From: Oscillospiraceae bacterium
GTDB taxonomy: Bacteria > Bacillota > Clostridia > Oscillospirales > Oscillospiraceae
Assembly: GCA_017445875.1 (NCBI GenBank)
Contig: JAFSRZ010000032.1
Location: forward strand, 1-60,306
Direction: 5' to 3'
DNA: 60,306 nt
Shown here: piece by piece, positions 522-6,973 of the stretch
Position numbering within the stretch: position 1 is the stretch's first letter
Layout of the letters: the number at the start of each line of letters is the position of its first letter
Made by a program: the position numbers and the translations under genes
The notes under the pieces: model-generated
What the model saw: the letters and a program-made list of their open reading frames with translations, nothing else
Databases searched by the model: none
What the model was told of the DNA's origin: nothing

Positions 522-1427
522 TTACATCAAACCATCCTTAAGCAACTCATCAAAAAAAGAAGGAAGCACACTCTGCCCCATCTGGTTATTGTTCACTCCG
601 ATATCGTCAATAGCCGGGACGCTCTGTACGGTATTCCCCTCCGAAACCATCACGCGTTCCCGTTTCCGAACGTGGTCTTTGATTTCTTGAAAAATATCCG
701 CATAATCCTGAGGCATGACCATTCTGTAGCGTTTACTGAAACGGTCAGGAACCTGCCCCGGAGGAAACATATCCCGCAACCTTGCCATGTCGGCGCCTTC
801 TCCGATTCCCAGAGGGAATACGTACAGCGTATTATTCTGTACACGTTCCCGCACCACGGAAAACTCGTTTCGCGGGTCATCCGTTGGCATTCCATCCGTC
901 ATGAATACCAAGATAGGCGTGTAGCTGTCATTATCCGCATCCCGCAGTTCTTCCTGCATTTCATCCAACTGCGCAAGGGAAGTACGGATTCCGTCGCCCA
1001 TAGCGGTTTCCGCTTTTTCCGTTTTGCATTTGCAGGAATCCACATCCAGTTCCACGCAGTCCAGAAAATCGTACTTGACGCGGGCGAATTTGCTGTACGT
1101 GATGATGGAAACAGCCACTTTCCGGGACAATTCGCGGTCGTCCTTCAACTGTTGGAGCAGACTGGAAAGCGTGTTGTTCAGTTGGTCCATCTTCTTGTAA
1201 TGCGCGTATCCGGGGCGGATGTCTTTCAGATTAAAGTAGTTGACGCTGTGTCCGTCCGAAAAACCGGAACCCGTGTTCCGCGTCAGTCCGCCCTCTTCAA
1301 TCCACCATTCATCCATGGACTGGCTGACATCCACGCAGAAGCAAATCAAAGCACGAGGGTCGCCGTCAATGAGCAAGCGGCGTTGCTGGCGGAAATGTTC
1401 GCTGGAATAATAAGCGTCGTTAGCCAC
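522..1427 (-). CDS. VWA-domain protein of the TIR/kinase-like operon
   Basis: This is a 301-residue protein made almost entirely of one von Willebrand factor A domain. The metal-ion-dependent adhesion site looks intact: DVSQSM near residue 32, a Thr in TAMGDG near 137, and MTDGMPTDD near 170. It resembles the TerY-like VWA proteins that accompany kinases and phosphatases in bacterial stress and conflict operons. There is no signal peptide, so it should be cytosolic. The start is GTG (1427) behind AAGGAGGG, 21 bases after the stop of the kinase-like gene, which makes it the third gene of the operon. Its role is inferred to be a metal-dependent scaffold or sensor. The VWA family call is firm, the system role is not. 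Confidence 0.85.
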   Translation of the reverse strand: MANDAYYSSEHFRQQRRLLIDGDPRALICFCVDVSQSMDEWWIEEGGLTRNTGSGFSDGHSVNYFNLKDIRPGYAHYKKMDQLNNTLSSLLQQLKDDRELSRKVAVSIITYSKFARVKYDFLDCVELDVDSCKCKTEKAETAMGDGIRTSLAQLDEMQEELRDADNDSYTPILVFMTDGMPTDDPRNEFSVVRERVQNNTLYVFPLGIGEGADMARLRDMFPPGQVPDRFSKRYRMVMPQDYADIFQEIKDHVRKRERVMVSEGNTVQSVPAIDDIGVNNNQMGQSVLPSFFDELLKDGLM

Positions 1428-1448
1428 GTAAATCCCTCCTTCCCCGAA

Positions 1449-3731
1449 TCAACGCTTGTCCCGGCAGTTCGGACAGCGAATCGGCTTGCTCCAGCCTTTT
1501 TTGCGATAAAATTCCGCGTCCTTATTCGTAAAGGGGAACGTGCATCCGCACTGGCGGCAGTGCAGATATTCGCTGGGGGCGTTATTCCATTCCTGTTGCT
1601 GTTGCTTGGCTCTGGAAACCAATGTGTTAAAGCAGTTTCCGCACACCGTAATGCGCTGGTTCCGCTGACGGTCCTCAAATTCCCGCATTTTATAAATAGG
1701 AACTTCGGCACCGCAGTTACGGCATTTCGCCGTGTTTTTCTTGCAGTCACGGCACCATTTCTGTTCTTCGTAGTCGAAATCCGTCTTCCCAATCTCGTGG
1801 GTAATCTTCGTGCGGTTGGAATAATAGAACGTTCTGCCACAACTCCTGCACGTAAACGAGACATTTGACTGACCGCTGGCGCAGGAAAGGCAGACCCGAT
1901 ACCCCCGCTCCCAGACATTGACCCGCTCTTTATTAATCCAGACATTTTGCATGAAATAAAAGCGAGGATGTTCCTGACCGCAGATTTGGCATTTGAAAAA
2001 AGTACGCTTTCCGTCGCGCCGGAATGTACGCGGAAACATCGCTCTGGAATCTTCCCGACCAGGTTCGGACAGCTTTTTCTGGAAGATATTGACCAGATTG
2101 AGCCACTCCGTCGCCCTCAGTCGATTTCCCGGCGCGGAGTTTTGACCCTTCGAGTGGAACGAGTTATAGAACGAACCGCACATCCGATAGGGCAGATGGT
2201 CCCAAACCATTTGCCAGACGCCGCCGGGACGTTCGGCGTCGCCGGAACGCCGTTGCTCCTTATTCGCAGAGAACGGAAACGACATATCGATGATGCTTTC
2301 GCGTTCGTTACTGCTACGGTTCTTCGCGTAGGGGAATTTTCCGGGCATCATCAGCATGAACGTCAGCACGGCAATCTCATAGTTTTCCTGGTCGACAGTC
2401 GTCATGAGAGGTTGCTTCTCTTCCCTCAGCAATTCTGGCGGCGTGAATGTCTGATTGCGCGACATAGCGGGATAGCCTTCAATTTGCCAGCTATCCGTAT
2501 CCACAAAAAAGACGTGTTCCTCATCTTGAATATAAATTGAGGCGGGATTCAAATAGCCAAAAGAAAGGCCAAGACGGTACATTCCGCAGATAGTTTTCAA
2601 AATGGTGGAAGCCAATACGCAGAGATTGCGCTTATCCCAGTTAGGGAAATATTGGGAAAGCCCCGTCGCCCCGTTCAACACAGAACGGGTAAGTTGCACT
2701 CCCTTGGAGGCGGGAATGAGAATGCCGACAAAATTTCCGTTGCCGTCTCTCAGCGTATCTTTAGGCCAGCAGACGCCGGGCAAGTCAACGGCATTCTGGA
2801 GCATTCGATTAGCCTTGGCCTCAAAAAAATTCAGTTGAAGAGCCGTTTCCGTGTAAATCTTTGCGAAAGAGTTGGCGTCATTCGTGGCATACGTAACGGA
2901 GGAATGGTCTGTCATCAAGGCCTTTTCCAGACGGTAGGCGGTTCGGCCGCGTTCGGACAACACCTGTTCGCCCACAGACGGAACGCGGCGCGGCGGGTTC
3001 ACCGCACGCTGTATTGGTGCCATTTCCGTCTGACGGCGGAATGGCTTCGCGCTTTCCGTCGCTTCTCTCGCAGGACGCTTTACCGAGGAGGACAGAGGAC
3101 AAAGTTTTCCGTCTCCATCCATCCCATACCATCTGAGGAACAGTCCCTTTTCCTTTGCCGCCTGTTGCGCCGCGTATCCCGCGTCGCCATCGGTTGTCAG
3201 GTATACAATGTTCCACTTCAGGCCTTTCGCCGCCATATCTCCGAAACACGCGGACAAATCTTCCCCGGAACGTTCCTGACAGTCCGCTTGATTTGCCAGC
3301 GTTTGTTCCGCAGAGGAAAGTTTCGCCTTTTCGTAAGCCGGAATGAAATAATATCTGGTCGCAAAAGACCCCTGACGTTCCCCGCGCCATGCGGCGGAAA
3401 ATGCCGGAAACGCCGCGCTTTTGATAAACAAAGCGTCCACAAAAACGCGGATTTGTTGCTGTGCAATCAGCTTTGGAACCGTATCGCCGATTTTCGGCCA
3501 GAATACGGCGGGCTTGTTGTCCCGCTGACGCGGCGACGCGTTATGATTCCGCGAACCGCGTGAGACAGGCGTCCCGTTTTCCTTTGGCGTAGGAACTGCC
3601 GTTCCAGCCGGAGGAACCGATGGAACGGGCACGACGGGATGCGGCGTGGAAACTGGACGGTCGGTCGCTTTCGCCGCTGAGTTCCCTTCCGTGGCCGGAG
3701 GATTCTTTTTGAGAAAATCTAAAAGTCCCAT
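1449..3731 (-). CDS. NYN-like / degenerate protein kinase / zinc-ribbon fusion protein
   Basis: This 760-residue multidomain cytosolic protein has four visible parts. Residues 1-75 are a Pro-rich linker. Residues 85-210 resemble a NYN/PIN-type nuclease fold, with acidic positions in FVDALF, SGEDLSACFGDM and TTDGDAGYA; this call is tentative. Residues 270-560 are a protein-kinase-like domain with a retained Lys (FAKIY) and VDTDSWQI in place of DFG. The catalytic-loop equivalent reads GYLNPASIYI, so the usual catalytic Asp and Asn are replaced and it may be a pseudokinase. Residues 590-760 hold at least four Cys-x2-Cys zinc ribbons. The ATG follows GGGGG, 17 bases after the TIR gene. VWA plus kinase plus zinc ribbon recalls TerY-P-type modules. 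Confidence 0.75.
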   Translation of the reverse strand: MGLLDFLKKNPPATEGNSAAKATDRPVSTPHPVVPVPSVPPAGTAVPTPKENGTPVSRGSRNHNASPRQRDNKPAVFWPKIGDTVPKLIAQQQIRVFVDALFIKSAAFPAFSAAWRGERQGSFATRYYFIPAYEKAKLSSAEQTLANQADCQERSGEDLSACFGDMAAKGLKWNIVYLTTDGDAGYAAQQAAKEKGLFLRWYGMDGDGKLCPLSSSVKRPAREATESAKPFRRQTEMAPIQRAVNPPRRVPSVGEQVLSERGRTAYRLEKALMTDHSSVTYATNDANSFAKIYTETALQLNFFEAKANRMLQNAVDLPGVCWPKDTLRDGNGNFVGILIPASKGVQLTRSVLNGATGLSQYFPNWDKRNLCVLASTILKTICGMYRLGLSFGYLNPASIYIQDEEHVFFVDTDSWQIEGYPAMSRNQTFTPPELLREEKQPLMTTVDQENYEIAVLTFMLMMPGKFPYAKNRSSNERESIIDMSFPFSANKEQRRSGDAERPGGVWQMVWDHLPYRMCGSFYNSFHSKGQNSAPGNRLRATEWLNLVNIFQKKLSEPGREDSRAMFPRTFRRDGKRTFFKCQICGQEHPRFYFMQNVWINKERVNVWERGYRVCLSCASGQSNVSFTCRSCGRTFYYSNRTKITHEIGKTDFDYEEQKWCRDCKKNTAKCRNCGAEVPIYKMREFEDRQRNQRITVCGNCFNTLVSRAKQQQQEWNNAPSEYLHCRQCGCTFPFTNKDAEFYRKKGWSKPIRCPNCRDKR

Positions 3732-3748
3732 AAATACCCCCTGATTTA

Positions 3749-4540
3749 TTACATATTGAGTCGGTTTATGGCCCGTGTCAGGACTTCAAGCGTATCGGGT
3801 CGCAAACCGCTTTTTCGATTGAGACATGAAAGCTCCTGGCAAAGCGTGCGCGCTTTTTCCAGAGCCGTTCTGTCCGTGCGGTTACTGTATCCAAATTTCT
3901 CGCAATAGAAAGCCAGCAAGAGCTTTGCGATTTCCTCTATACGACAATTTTTCCAGTAAAATTCCGCCTCGTCCGCCCAGCCGCTTCTCCACAAATCATC
4001 CCGGCTTCGCTTTACCAGAAACCTGAATTGATTGCATAATACGCTGGGGTAGCTGTTTTGATAAAAGTTCTGAATCCAATCAATCACCTCATTTTCTGTG
4101 CTTAACGCGATTGTATCCGAAAAGATAGTGTGAAGCTGTTGCGCCAGCGTATGGCTGAAGTCATCGGTGATAAACACTTTTGCCGCGTCCTTGGTACTGC
4201 AACATTCGTACATACGCGAAGTGTGAAAAGCGGAGACTTCCCCATAAAGATAACTCCATGTGCCATCGTCTCGCACATCCAACAGTCCTCCATACTGGTC
4301 ACGAGGAATGTTTTTGTTGACTACCAGCAAAAACAACGGGGTGCGCCGCACAATTTCTGGAGTTTGCTTAAAAGAGCCATAGCGATTCACTTCCGGGTGG
4401 AAGTACGGACGATTCTTTTTGCCTCCGATTAATGGGATACCTTTAATTTTTTCGTAAAGCATTTGCGCCTGAGCTTCTGAACCCTTGTATTTATTGCCGT
4501 GATAAGCAATGAATACGTCGAACTTTTCGTCCCGTGTCAT
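3749..4540 (-). CDS. TIR-domain protein, first gene of a candidate conflict operon
   Basis: The N-terminal 150 or so residues look like a TIR domain: FDVFIAYHG at the start, a central hydrophobic strand PLFLLVVNKNI, and YLYGEVSAFH, whose Glu could be the NADase catalytic residue. The C-terminal 110 residues are predicted helical and unassigned. Bacterial TIR domains commonly cleave NAD or make cyclic ADP-ribose signals in antiphage defence; that activity is inferred here, not shown. I chose the ATG at 4540 behind GGGAG; an ATG at 4558 would add six residues. It leads a three-gene operon with the NYN/kinase-like and VWA genes and has its own consensus promoter. Base composition is poorer in GC than the core genes to the right. 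Confidence 0.75.
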   Translation of the reverse strand: MTRDEKFDVFIAYHGNKYKGSEAQAQMLYEKIKGIPLIGGKKNRPYFHPEVNRYGSFKQTPEIVRRTPLFLLVVNKNIPRDQYGGLLDVRDDGTWSYLYGEVSAFHTSRMYECCSTKDAAKVFITDDFSHTLAQQLHTIFSDTIALSTENEVIDWIQNFYQNSYPSVLCNQFRFLVKRSRDDLWRSGWADEAEFYWKNCRIEEIAKLLLAFYCEKFGYSNRTDRTALEKARTLCQELSCLNRKSGLRPDTLEVLTRAINRLNM

Positions 4541-4625
4541 AGGCAAACAAGCTCCCATGTGATTGCATAATCCGGTATGCTGTTCCGTTTTCCGGCAAGC
4601 GTCCAGCGAAAAATCCTACATAATT

Positions 4626-4654
4626 ATTATACCACTTCTGTCAATATGTGTCAA
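4626..4654 (-). promoter_or_regulatory. Consensus promoter of the TIR operon
   Basis: Read on the minus strand, TTGACA (4654-4649) is followed 17 bases later by TATAAT (4631-4626), a perfect housekeeping promoter. A second TTGACA lies at 4644-4639, within the spacer. The transcript would have a leader of about 80 bases before the TIR start. Confidence 0.8.
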
Positions 4655-4697
4655 GTATTCATGAAATTTTCGTTTTTTGGACATTTTATACACTTTC

Positions 4698-4745
4698 AAA
4701 ACGTTCCGCCGTCTCATTAAGACGAAGACGGCAGAACGTTTTTTT
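4698..4745 (+). terminator. Strong hairpin with T-run between the divergent genes
   Basis: The arms AAACGTTCCGCCGTCT and AGACGGCAGAACGTT pair with one bulge and are followed by a run of T. It has the form of a rho-independent terminator on the plus strand, although no plus-strand gene precedes it in the window. It may instead insulate the recombinase promoter or be a relic. Confidence 0.7.
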
Positions 4746-4767
4746 CTTGAAAATTTCACAGTCACTC

Positions 4768-4796
4768 TTTACAAGTAAAATTCTCTATGGTATAAT
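4768..4796 (+). promoter_or_regulatory. Promoter of the serine recombinase gene
   Basis: TTTACA (4768-4773), a 17-base spacer and TATAAT (4791-4796) lie about 35 bases before the recombinase ATG, with the AAAGGAGG ribosome site in between. Confidence 0.75.
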
Positions 4797-4830
4797 ACAC
4801 TAAAATCATTAACAAAGGAGGCTTGTTACG

Positions 4831-6636
4831 ATGAACACGCCAAACCGTACCTTTGCCATCTACTCCCGGAAGTCGAAATTCACGGGCAAGGGGGAGAGTA
4901 TCGGCAATCAAGTGGAGTTGTGCCGGGAGTACATCCGCGCCCACTACGGCTACGCCGACGCCGATACCGCCGCCGTATTCGAGGACGAGGGATTTTCCGG
5001 CGGCAACCTGAACCGCCCCGGATACCAGCGCATGATGAAGGCCGCCCATGAGGGCAAATTCCGCGCCATTGTCGTGTATCGCCTTGACCGTATCAGCCGC
5101 AACATCAGCGACTTTTCCGGTCTGATTGAGGAGTTGAGCCGTCTGGACGTGGACTTTGTGTCCATCCGGGAGCAGTTTGACACGGGTTCGCCTATGGGAC
5201 GCGCCATGATGTATATATCATCGGTGTTTTCGCAGTTGGAGCGCGAGACGATAGCGGAGCGTATCCGTGACAACATGCGGGAGTTAGCGAAAACGGGTCG
5301 TTGGCTGGGCGGGGCTACGCCTACCGGGTACGCGTCGGAGAGCGGCAGGAGCGTGAGCGTGGACGGCAAAACGCGCAAGATGTGCCAACTGAAACTGATA
5401 CCGGACGAGGCGGAGATTGTGCGCGACATTTACCGTCTGTTCACGGAGTACGATTCCCTGACCGCCGTCGAAACGGAACTGTTACGGCGTCAGAGCGTGA
5501 CCAAGACGGGAAAGAGCTTCACGCGCTTTTCGATTAAAAATATCTTACAGAATCCCGTGTACCTGATAGCGGACGGGGACGCCTACCGTTATTTCGCGGA
5601 CAGGCAGGCGGAGATATTTTCGGACTTGCGGGAGTTCGACGGCGTGCGGGGGATACTGGCCTACAACCGCACCGACCAAGAGAAGGGACGCGCCGCGATA
5701 CCGTTACCCGTCAACGAGTGGATTATCACGGTAGGGCAACATCACGGAATCATCCCGTCTAAGACGTGGATACAGGTACAGGAATCGTTAGAGCGGAACA
5801 AATCGAAGGGCTACCGCAAGCCCCGGAGCAATGAGGCGTTGCTGACGGGACTGTTATTTTGTCGTTGCGGGAGCCGGATGTATCCGAAACTGACCAAGCG
5901 TGTGACCGCCGACGGCAAACCCGTCTACACTTACGTCTGCAAAATGAAGGAACGCAGTCAGCGGAGCCGTTGCAATGTCCGCAACGCGAGCGGGAACGCG
6001 CTGGACGCGGGAATCGTGGAGGAAATCAAGAAGTTGTCGGGGGACGAGAGCCACTTTATAGAGCAGTTGGAAAAGAGCAAGAAGTTCTACACCGGAGACC
6101 GTGACGAGTACGGGGCGACGCTGGAGGACTTGCGGCGGGAGTACGCGGCGAACGACAAAAAAATCACGGGACTGACGGACAGTCTCGCGGACTTAGGGGA
6201 CGGCGCGGCGCGGAAACGGGTTGCGGCGCGGATTGAGGAGTTAAGCCGCGCCGGGGAGGCGTTGCGCGTGCGTATCGGGGAACTGGAAGGGCTGACGGAG
6301 CGAAAGACGTTGAGCGACATGGAATTTGAGCTTATGCGGCAGTTGCTGACGAACTTCCGGGACAGTATCGACGCCATGAGCGTGGAGGAGAAACGCGCCG
6401 CCGTGCGGACGCTTATCCGGAAAGTGATATGGGACGGCGAATTTGCGCACGTCGTACTGTTTGGGGCGTCGGAAGATGAGATAGAGTATCCCGATTTGAA
6501 GCCGCTGATTTCCGCCGCGACGGACGCGGACGAATACGAACAGGGGGACATGGAGCCGGACGCGGAGACGCGTTTGTGTGAGGATACCGAACGAAATTCT
6601 GATGTACTTTCGCGGACAGCGGAAGTTACAGAATGA
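4831..6636 (+). CDS. Large serine recombinase of a skin-like sigK-intervening element
   Basis: This 601-residue site-specific recombinase has the three-part layout of large serine recombinases. The N-terminal resolvase domain (1-160) begins FAIYSRKSK with the nucleophile Ser and contains YRLDRISRN and FSQLERETIAERI. A recombinase domain spans about 170-310. A zinc ribbon (LLFCRCGSRMY...YVCKMK, distal Cys in RCNV) is followed by a coiled coil near 410-530. The same family includes SpoIVCA, which excises the skin element from sigK. Its last codons overlap the start of the sigK 3' fragment, so the recombination junction appears to lie within this reading frame. It has its own promoter and a strong AAAGGAGG site. 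Confidence 0.93.
   Translation: MNTPNRTFAIYSRKSKFTGKGESIGNQVELCREYIRAHYGYADADTAAVFEDEGFSGGNLNRPGYQRMMKAAHEGKFRAIVVYRLDRISRNISDFSGLIEELSRLDVDFVSIREQFDTGSPMGRAMMYISSVFSQLERETIAERIRDNMRELAKTGRWLGGATPTGYASESGRSVSVDGKTRKMCQLKLIPDEAEIVRDIYRLFTEYDSLTAVETELLRRQSVTKTGKSFTRFSIKNILQNPVYLIADGDAYRYFADRQAEIFSDLREFDGVRGILAYNRTDQEKGRAAIPLPVNEWIITVGQHHGIIPSKTWIQVQESLERNKSKGYRKPRSNEALLTGLLFCRCGSRMYPKLTKRVTADGKPVYTYVCKMKERSQRSRCNVRNASGNALDAGIVEEIKKLSGDESHFIEQLEKSKKFYTGDRDEYGATLEDLRREYAANDKKITGLTDSLADLGDGAARKRVAARIEELSRAGEALRVRIGELEGLTERKTLSDMEFELMRQLLTNFRDSIDAMSVEEKRAAVRTLIRKVIWDGEFAHVVLFGASEDEIEYPDLKPLISAATDADEYEQGDMEPDAETRLCEDTERNSDVLSRTAEVTE
6581..6600 (+). other. Presumed recombination junction (right attachment site) of the skin-like element
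   Basis: Homology to SigK begins at the Asn-Glu-Ile-Leu codons at 6590. In intact proteins of this family the preceding residues read Ala-Arg-Cys-Ile-Glu, whereas here they read Val-Arg-Ile-Pro. The known Bacillus skin crossover lies at AATGA in the same Asn-Glu codons; the equivalent bases here are AACGA (6590-6594). The exact core cannot be fixed without the left end. Confidence 0.65.
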
Positions 6637-6973
6637 GGTATCGCTGTCGGAGACCATCGACGCCGACGGGCAGGAGGACAGTTTACAGTTACTGGACGTG
6701 GTGGGCATCGAGGACACCATGTTGGAGGACTTGCACGACCGTGAGAACGCGCTTCGGGTGCGGCGACTGGTACGGGAATGTCTGCCGGAGCGGGAAGCGG
6801 AGGTTATCCGGCTGCGGTACGGTTTAGACGGCACGGTACCCTTGACACAGCGGGAAGTGGCGGCGAAATTCGGGATTTCGCGTTCGTACGTGTCCAGAAT
6901 TGAGACCAAGGCGCTAAAGAGTCTCCGCGCCGGACTGGAAGCCGCGACGCCGCGCAAAAACGCGGATTCGTGA
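6590..6973 (+). CDS. sigK: sigK 3' half: sporulation sigma factor K, split by the element
   Basis: This is the C-terminal part (about 127 residues) of a SigE/SigK-type sporulation sigma factor, beginning in late region 2 and running through regions 3 and 4. Recognisable motifs are NEILMYFRGQ, EVSLSETID, RLRYGLDG, LTQREVAAKFG and ISRSYVSRIE; the last is the region 4.2 helix-turn-helix that reads the -35 element. Full-length relatives have about 100 more residues with the core-binding region 2, absent here. No proper start codon or ribosome site fits this frame, so it should be expressed only after excision of the element fuses it to a 5' half left of the window, as in the mother cell of Bacillus subtilis and Clostridioides difficile. 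Confidence 0.9.
   Translation, partial: NEILMYFRGQRKLQNEVSLSETIDADGQEDSLQLLDVVGIEDTMLEDLHDRENALRVRRLVRECLPEREAEVIRLRYGLDGTVPLTQREVAAKFGISRSYVSRIETKALKSLRAGLEAATPRKNADS

What the first reader, a model, noticed from the sequence alone, without database searches (positions are those of the whole stretch)
522..4654. Candidate new conflict system: TIR + NYN/pseudokinase/zinc-ribbon + VWA operon carried by a sporulation element
Three cytosolic proteins with conflict-type domains are encoded in one compact operon with a perfect promoter, inside a mobile element. TIR suggests NAD cleavage or signalling, NYN suggests RNA cleavage, and VWA plus kinase plus zinc ribbon recalls TerY-P stress modules. I know of no described defence system with this exact set. 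Because the element should be lost from the mother cell, the module would act only in vegetative cells and the forespore lineage.
Basis: partly seen in the sequence, partly recalled or inferred. Interest (0 to 1): 0.9.

Follow-up and report, generated by a model that had tools for sequence, protein, structure and literature searches.

The report
Kinase-dead defence operon with swappable effector
A three-gene bacterial operon, probably a cell-suicide defence against viruses, looks like a known kinase-phosphatase defence module that lost its phosphatase and its kinase activity and gained an exchangeable killer enzyme instead.

Summary
In detail: three minus-strand genes (17- and 21-bp gaps) behind a perfect extended sigma-70 promoter, in an element that splits sigK. 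The module is real and not confined to sigK elements: the order effector > pseudokinase-zinc-ribbon > VWA recurs in seven other distinct loci. It descends from TerY-P-like triads (PIN-kinase-ZnR, VWA, PP2C). Its eight kinases form one clade (100/99), all lost the catalytic Asp and Asn, and no PP2C was found beside them (in the window only 521 bp beyond the VWA gene are assembled); 22 of 23 active-kinase loci have one. The upstream gene is exchanged: TIR-type in four loci (the window's family is missed by Pfam but supported by profile comparison), calcineurin-like phosphoesterase in four. In the six crown loci both enzyme types share a C-terminal domain (hhalign E 6.7e-14), presumably for docking. 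The 'NYN' is a degenerate PIN-like domain, absent in four loci. Best reading: the pseudokinase/VWA pair senses infection and releases a TIR NADase or phosphoesterase for abortive defence. A new variant of a known kind, not seen in the papers searched.

The parts
4626..4654 (-). operon promoter, TTGACA-17-TATAAT with extended -10 TG
   Evidence: 12 of 12 consensus matches; 2 such strict sites in the window, 0.03 expected
3749..4558 (-). effector gene, TIR-type protein of 269 aa
   Evidence: hhalign against a 27-sequence TIR_2-type alignment scores 30.4 versus at most 19.96 in 100 column shuffles; no profile-library hit; one full-length relative found, L009, 40% identical
4064..4531 (-). TIR-type domain (residues ~10-165) with candidate catalytic Glu107
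   Evidence: FDVFIAYHG aligned on TIR strand A; YLYGEVSAF falls on the catalytic Glu segment when low-confidence columns are forced; Glu107 kept in L009
3752..4057 (-). C-terminal domain (residues 168-269) shared with the phosphoesterase proteins of L003, L005, L006, L007
   Evidence: hhalign probability 98.1%, E 6.7e-14 for the pair; three control pairings 0.1-2.7%
1449..3731 (-). pseudokinase-zinc-ribbon gene, 760 aa, with N-terminal PIN-like domain
3087..3500 (-).
   Evidence: PIN_4 in six of nine active relatives scanned (one just under Pfam's cutoff), no hit in the window; alignment read by eye; absent in L005, L006, L007, L009
2097..2969 (-). pseudokinase domain (residues ~255-545): K291 and D411 kept, catalytic Asp is Y393, Asn is S398, glycine loop lost
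1452..2009 (-). zinc-ribbon/treble-clef region (residues ~575-760) with conserved Cys pairs
   Evidence: (zf_Tbcl 2.1e-7 at residues 722-760)
522..1427 (-). VWA gene, 301 aa, complete MIDAS D33-x-S35-x-S37, T141, D178
   Evidence: PADLOC TerY model 7e-4
4698..4742 (.). 17-bp inverted repeat (11-nt loop) between the two divergent promoters, followed on the + strand by a run of T; possible terminator
   Evidence: not listed by the terminator scan, whose loop limit is 8
4831..6636 (+). large serine recombinase of the sigK element
   Evidence: Resolvase 2.2e-35, Recombinase 8.9e-17; relatives beside sigK C-halves in three congeners
6578..6973 (+). C-terminal half of sigK, outer border of the element
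   Evidence: SigK model 2e-30, positions 111-230; SigE next at 1.1e-24; 64-72% identical to near full-length sigK-type genes of congeners, 39% to the own genome's other sigma hit

Best explanation
The operon is a kinase-dead descendant of a TerY-P-like phosphosignalling triad that has become an effector-bearing defence module. Shown by sequence: pseudokinase-zinc-ribbon and VWA genes lie together in 8 of 8 loci, no PP2C gene is found beside them, the kinase catalytic Asp and Asn are lost, the PIN-like domain is eroded or absent, and the upstream slot holds a TIR-type or a calcineurin-like phosphoesterase gene; in the crown group the two enzymes share a C-terminal domain. Inferred: that domain docks the effector on the pseudokinase/VWA complex; zinc ribbons and the metal-binding VWA sense an infection product; sensing releases or clusters the effector; the TIR then cleaves NAD+ (the phosphoesterase would cut a nucleotide or nucleic acid), and the infected cell dies or stalls before phage release.
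For: Co-conservation and order in the window and seven other distinct loci. Pseudokinases one group at 100/99 in a tree of 32 rows (midpoint root); the VWA tree agrees more weakly, 83/82. Catalytic Asp and Asn lost in 8 of 8, kept in 23 of 23 active-kinase loci; PP2C in 0 of 8 versus 22 of 23. Effector exchange: TIR-type in 4, phosphoesterase in 4. Shared C-terminal domain. TIR support for the window protein; Pfam TIR_2 in L008 and L010. Defence leaning: the L005 phosphoesterase matches PADLOC models named Effector/Endonuclease (5e-17) and PDC-S60 (2e-8), and an FRG-domain gene matching PADLOC PDC-S15 (6e-48) follows the L008 module. Patchy distribution. TerY-P acts against T7-like phages according to a commentary on Gao et al. 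(PMC7699616, passage).
Against: No experiment exists. The window's TIR type is not detected by the profile libraries tried, and only one full-length relative was found. Docking, sensing and abortive infection are inference. The pseudokinase set is one group, so loss of kinase, loss of PP2C and gain of effector may be a single event and not a repeated correlation. In the window only 521 bp beyond the VWA gene, where triads carry PP2C, are assembled. No close copy was found in the IMG/VR, phage or plasmid collections, so mobility rests on context. L008 and L010 TIR proteins lack the shared C-terminal domain. PADLOC finds no defence model for genes 1 and 2.
Confidence: 0.6

Rival explanations
1. 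A stress- or metal-responsive module of the TerY type without an immune role: the VWA and zinc ribbons sense metal, and the TIR-type or phosphoesterase protein makes or destroys a nucleotide signal.
For: TerY-P triads are linked to tellurite resistance and proposed as metal-sensing switches (passage of PMC11090510). VWA MIDAS and the Cys pairs are intact. Some TerY-P-like triads look chromosomal and settled: ten genomes of one genus carry one, beside genes that look like housekeeping genes by eye.
Against: Effector exchange on a shared tail, decay of kinase and PIN domains and patchy occurrence fit conflict better. I made no search for ter genes, so their absence is not claimed.
Confidence: 0.2
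2. A toxin-antitoxin-like or element-maintenance unit: the TIR or phosphoesterase is a toxin held by the pseudokinase/VWA pair, and keeps the sigK or other mobile element in the lineage.
For: Located in a sigK element here; upstream of replication- or transfer-type genes in L003 (DUF3991/Toprim_2, LPD1).
Against: L009 lies among genes that look like ordinary chromosomal genes by eye. Zinc ribbons and VWA exceed what a simple antitoxin needs. Toxicity was not tested.
Confidence: 0.12
3. The pseudokinase is an active enzyme of another kind (for example AMPylation or glutamylation by a kinase fold), so the module is a modification system with a TIR side gene.
For: The ATP-binding Lys (K291) and DFG-position Asp (D411) are kept in the window although catalytic Asp and Asn are lost. 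Pseudokinases with such chemistry appear in the reference list of PMC13174449 (passage).
Against: The glycine loop is lost and the DFG-position Asp is Asn in L010, so nucleotide use may not be kept across the group.
Confidence: 0.08

Closest known systems
TerY-P triad (TerY-like VWA, PP2C, Ser/Thr kinase with zinc ribbon)
   Same: VWA plus kinase-fold protein with C-terminal zinc ribbon in one operon; trees place the module's kinases and VWA proteins among those of VWA/PP2C/kinase triads
   Different: no PP2C found, kinase motifs lost, extra upstream TIR-type or phosphoesterase gene
TerY-P-like stand-alone antiphage systems of Gao et al. 2020, and the TerY-P modules of CoCoNuT systems (PMC11090510)
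   Same: VWA/kinase core tied to defence
   Different: described with a kinase and a phosphatase; no TIR or calcineurin effector on a shared tail in the passages seen
vWA-MoxR ternary and GAP1 GTPase-centric conflict systems (Kaur et al. 2020, PMC7159879)
   Same: TIR and calcineurin phosphoesterase as variable effectors, effector-associated domains, many inactive kinase domains; a kinase-ZnR + PP2C + vWA set with GAP1-N2 (passages)
   Different: none of the three operon genes is a MoxR AAA+ protein or GTPase; the GAP1-N2 kinase is described as catalytically active
TIR abortive-infection systems, including Swarozyc (DUF4062, preprint PMC13174449)
   Same: TIR or TIR-like NADase as killer enzyme, from a family not classed as TIR by name (passages)
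   Different: different partner genes; no trigger known here

Membership tests
TerY-P triad | TerY-like VWA protein | tested here: met
   Pfam VWA 1.7e-9; PADLOC TerY 7e-4; MIDAS residues complete
TerY-P triad | PP2C phosphatase in the operon | tested here: not met
   PP2C profile finds none in the 60 kb window nor in L003-L010 at E<=0.01; caveat: only 521 bp beyond the window's VWA gene are assembled
TerY-P triad | catalytically competent Ser/Thr kinase | tested here: not met
   catalytic Asp is Tyr and Asn is Ser; glycine loop lost; sequence only
TerY-P triad | C-terminal zinc ribbon on the kinase protein | tested here: met
   zf_Tbcl 2.1e-7; conserved Cys pairs
TIR domain protein | match to a TIR profile above cutoff | tested here: not met
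   no Pfam, NCBIfam or PADLOC hit for gene 1 at E<=1
TIR domain protein | profile-profile similarity with catalytic Glu in register | tested here: met
   hhalign score 30.4, probability 55%, E 1.2e-4 for the pair, 100 column shuffles at most 19.96; Glu107 in register only when low-confidence columns are forced; weaker targets gave 0.2% and 10%
TIR domain protein | TIR fold | not testable with these tools
   structure prediction not available
NYN nuclease | NYN profile match | tested here: not met
   no Pfam hit of that kind in the window protein at E<=1
PIN nuclease | PIN profile match and acidic active site | tested here: inconclusive
   none in the window; PIN_4 in six of nine active relatives scanned; window keeps some acidic positions by eye only
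vWA-MoxR ternary system | MoxR AAA+ ATPase in the operon | tested here: not met
   the three operon genes have no AAA+ match in Pfam
sigK intervening (skin) element | recombinase beside one half of a split sigK | tested here: met
sigK intervening (skin) element | other half of sigK at the far end | tested here: inconclusive
   the contig ends inside the element; no N-half found in the 77% complete assembly
antiphage defence system | protection against phage | not testable with these tools
   needs an experiment

The most novel reading that the evidence does not exclude
A phosphosignalling triad was turned into a phosphorylation-free immune receptor: kinase, phosphatase and built-in PIN nuclease all lost activity or vanished, the pseudokinase-ZnR/VWA pair stayed as sensor and scaffold, and a separately encoded killer enzyme (TIR or calcineurin-like phosphoesterase) became exchangeable through a common docking tail, in one case inside a sporulation element.
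Probability: 0.45. Interest if true: 0.78.

Novelty: new variant of a known kind. Interest (0 to 1): 0.63.

Why it matters
How the kinase, phosphatase and VWA protein of TerY-P modules act together is, to my knowledge, open. A natural lineage that dropped phosphorylation but kept the VWA/kinase-fold/zinc-ribbon core points to that core as the sensor, and its exchangeable effector gives a direct read-out (NAD+ loss). It would also add a TIR family that common profiles miss, and a new effector docking domain.

Tried and rejected
Rejected: NYN assignment (no profile hit; relatives carry PIN_4). Rejected: membership in TerY-P (no PP2C found, dead kinase). Rejected: a window-only oddity (seven other distinct loci). 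Misleading count: one search reports 170 of 200 family genomes with a match, but the listed places other than the window's own, G014's (L012) and the own C22 kinase lie in the common zinc tail of the query; the end of that list was cut. Tested and negative: relatives in viral contigs and phages; TIR-type relatives in plasmids and in 291 class genomes other than the window's own; C-terminal tails of the L008 and L010 TIR proteins against the shared domain (0.1-0.4%). The middle protein matches 35 plasmid records; 20 were listed, all at 21-27% identity, and I opened only the best three, all PP2C-bearing triads. First TIR comparisons were weak: with two TIR sequences (0.2%) and with a profile that had shrunk to 50 columns (10%); the full-length 27-sequence alignment gave 55%. 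Those TIR sequences were gathered by an iterated search that started from L008 and L010, and 25 rows from the 30 loci were kept. A Pfam scan of 20 genes in or beside active-kinase modules of 14 loci found no TIR or phosphoesterase, nor did narrow TIR and phosphoesterase profiles over all fetched stretches; not every flanking gene was scanned with Pfam. PADLOC did not recognise the kinase or VWA of the triad control L038 as TerY-P, so PADLOC is a weak membership test for this lineage. Rows dropped before counts: L004 (near copy of L003), L065 (same contig as L010), L012 (same place as L060).
Full report
Observation. The three genes exist as described. On the minus strand lie 3749-4558 (269 aa), 1449-3731 (760 aa) and 522-1427 (301 aa), separated by 17 and 21 bp. 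A consensus promoter with an extended -10 lies at 4654-4626; its strict pattern occurs twice in the window against 0.03 expected. The window is bases 1-60306 of contig C12 of a 49-contig, 77% complete assembly. To the right of the operon lie a large serine recombinase (4831-6636) and a C-terminal sigK half (SigK model 2e-30 at positions 111-230, SigE next at 1.1e-24).

sigK element. In the own genome the sigK model finds no N-half. The window's half is 64-72% identical to near full-length genes of six congeners, but 39% to the own genome's other strong sigma hit on C19, which falls in a score group near 245 bits that recurs in congeners; I take that one to be sigE without a direct test. Seven of 21 genus genomes searched (own included) have a near full-length match at 277.7-286.5 bits. 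Relatives of the window's recombinase (45%, 48% and, over a 136-residue fragment, 79% identity) lie beside sigK C-halves in three congeners, and one (G1328) has both halves on one contig, about 35 kb apart. As no N-half precedes the operon on the contig, the operon should lie inside the element; its far border is not assembled.

Relatives. A scan of the genome-contig collection (84,980 species by its description) with the middle protein gave nine loci. In six of them (L003-L007, L009) a VWA gene 62-74% identical follows the middle gene by 18-21 bp. L008 and L010 are more distant but keep the same three-gene order. L011 is a different, PP2C-bearing cluster.

The first gene is exchanged. L009 carries a full-length relative of the window's first protein (40%). 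L008 and L010 carry clear TIR proteins (Pfam TIR_2 1.4e-14 and 1.6e-10). L005 and L006 carry calcineurin-like phosphoesterases (Pfam Metallophos 9.4e-12 and 7.5e-13), and the fragments in L003 and L007, cut by contig ends, match the same family. Metal-binding motifs of that family (recalled: D-x-H, GD, GNHD, H, GHxH-like) can be read by eye in L005 and L006. Thus 4 of 8 distinct loci have a TIR-type gene (window, L008, L009, L010) and 4 of 8 a phosphoesterase. L004 is a near copy of L003 whose first 177 bases hold the same phosphoesterase tail and is not counted.

Shared tail. The C-terminal profile of the window and L009 TIR-type proteins aligns over 76 columns with that of the four phosphoesterases with probability 98.1% and E 6.7e-14 for the pair; three control pairings give 0.1-2.7% (alignments). 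The L008 and L010 TIR proteins do not show this tail (0.1-0.4%); L010 has weak Sel1/TPR matches instead.

Is gene 1 a TIR protein? Pfam, NCBIfam and PADLOC give no hit at E<=1 and no solved-structure sequence matches at E<=1. I built an alignment of 27 TIR_2-type sequences, 25 from the 30 loci plus L008 and L010. hhalign of the window/L009 N-terminal profile against it scores 30.4 (probability 55%, E 1.2e-4 for the pair); 100 column-shuffled versions reach at most 19.96 and the phosphoesterase control 10.8. The confident part (residues 10-84) starts at FDVFIAYHG on TIR strand A; when low-confidence columns are forced, YLYGEVSAF falls on the catalytic Glu segment. Poorer target profiles had given 0.2% and 10%. 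I therefore call it TIR-type, supported and not proven.

Kinase. A profile of 16 sequences, the window's included, matches solved kinases at 1.6e-6, which fixes the register of the catalytic loop and the DFG segment. In the window the catalytic Asp is Tyr393 and the Asn is Ser398; the glycine loop reads MTDHSSVTY; Lys291 and the DFG-position Asp411 remain. All 8 module loci lack the catalytic Asp and Asn (L010 also has Asn at the DFG position). All 23 loci with an active-type kinase that I fetched as long stretches keep the Asp, Asn and DFG-position Asp; most, not all, also keep a GGEG- or GAEG-like loop. A PP2C gene is present in 22 of these 23 (L070, cut by a contig end, shows neither PP2C nor VWA) and in 0 of 8 module loci. 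The caveat for the window is that only 521 bp beyond its VWA gene, the usual place of PP2C in triads, are assembled; five module loci (L003, L006, L007, L008, L010) have about 7 kb there, L005 4.6 kb and L009 2.9 kb. The 23 comprise L011, three plasmid loci and 19 of the 20 stretches, the twentieth being L010 again; five further hits of one genus (g306) were read only in shorter loci: 5 of 5 active motifs, PP2C in 4 of 5. A tree of 32 kinase regions puts the 8 pseudokinases on one side of a branch at 100/99, with ten rows of PP2C-bearing loci as nearest group (midpoint root); L010 then L008 branch first, both with TIR_2 effectors, and the crown of six holds the tail-bearing TIR-type and phosphoesterase loci. 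A tree of 34 VWA proteins agrees more weakly (83/82; one group in 85% of 200 bootstrap trees). So loss of kinase activity, loss of PP2C and gain of an effector may be one event; within the crown the effector changed at least once.

PIN-like part. Six of nine active relatives scanned carry PIN_4 at the N-terminus (L037, L038, L039, L066, L073, L076; L038 just under Pfam's cutoff), L060, L061 and L011 show none, and the window's own segment has no hit. The alignment shows PIN acidic motifs in active loci and eroded versions in L010, L008, L003 and the window (read by eye). L005, L006, L007 and L009 lack the segment.

Defence leaning. The L005 phosphoesterase matches PADLOC models named Effector/Endonuclease (5e-17) and PDC-S60 (2e-8); the next gene after the L008 module is an FRG-domain protein (Pfam 4.5e-22) matching PDC-S15 (6e-48). 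Occurrence is patchy: the kinase-Zn profile at 1e-20 hits 5 of 394 order, 16 of 391 class and 6 of 398 phylum genomes, the own genome included in each; apart from the window and L010 the opened ones were active-kinase loci. The pseudokinase profile at 1e-40 hits 1 of 70 genomes of L010's family, that of L010 itself. Two plasmid triads sit near transposase, recombinase, conjugation or relaxase genes.

Literature. TerY-P is VWA + PP2C + kinase-ZnR, linked to tellurite resistance and defence (PMC11090510, passages); it acts against T7-like phages (PMC7699616, passage; Gao et al. itself not read). Kaur et al. (PMC7159879, passages) describe TIR and calcineurin phosphoesterase among variable effectors of other vWA and GTPase systems, many kinase domains with disrupted catalytic residues, and an active kinase-ZnR + PP2C + vWA set. 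I also saw passages of PMC13174449 and PMC3710099. A look-up for the 2012 Ter paper of Anantharaman et al., by an id recalled from memory, found nothing held. Eight searches were made (one search was on sigK elements); from their listings and the passages named I saw no description of a pseudokinase-ZnR/VWA module with a TIR or calcineurin gene. Most subscription papers are not in that library.

Mechanism and status. Shown by sequence: gene set, order, residue losses, effector exchange, shared tail. Inferred: the tail docks effectors on the pseudokinase/VWA pair; zinc ribbons and VWA sense infection; release or clustering switches on NAD+ cleavage by the TIR (or nucleotide/nucleic-acid hydrolysis by the phosphoesterase), giving abortive infection. 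I rate this 0.6, and file the system as a new variant derived from TerY-P, not a member.

Noticed in passing
window 4625-4797: A 17-bp inverted repeat (4698-4742) lies between the operon promoter and a second near-consensus promoter (TTTACA-17-TATAAT, 4768-4796, +) that faces the recombinase; the two -10 regions are themselves a 10-bp inverted repeat 153 bp apart. A sigma-A-like promoter before a sporulation recombinase is unexpected.
   Followed up: partly
G000:C22, locus L077 (3229-7980) and C22:29354-29704: The own genome holds a second, PP2C-bearing cluster with an active-type kinase and a VWA protein, and a TIR_2 gene on the same contig.
   Followed up: partly
L094, L095 (G1328:C28) and L097 (G1331:C29): Other sigK-splitting regions in the genus seem to carry different cargo: pilus-like genes and a 2568-aa NRPS-like ORF between the sigK halves of G1328, and an ATP-binding protein gene beside the recombinase in G1331 (by eye).
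   Followed up: partly
L008:11074-11928: An FRG-domain gene (Pfam 4.5e-22; PADLOC PDC-S15 6e-48) lies just after the TIR module.
   Followed up: partly
L007:456-2223: The pseudokinase gene lies in two overlapping frames, so it is broken or has a sequencing error.
   Followed up: no
L042-L051 (genus g306): A kinase-VWA set with active motifs recurs in ten genomes of one genus, with PP2C in reach in nine of ten; in three of the five stretches fetched it lies beside a lysA-like gene by eye. It looks like a settled chromosomal, perhaps non-defence, triad.
   Followed up: partly
L011:473-12767: Two tandem triad-like modules with two PP2C, three VWA and three kinase-type genes, plus PIN-like proteins by eye, in one 12-kb run.
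   Followed up: no
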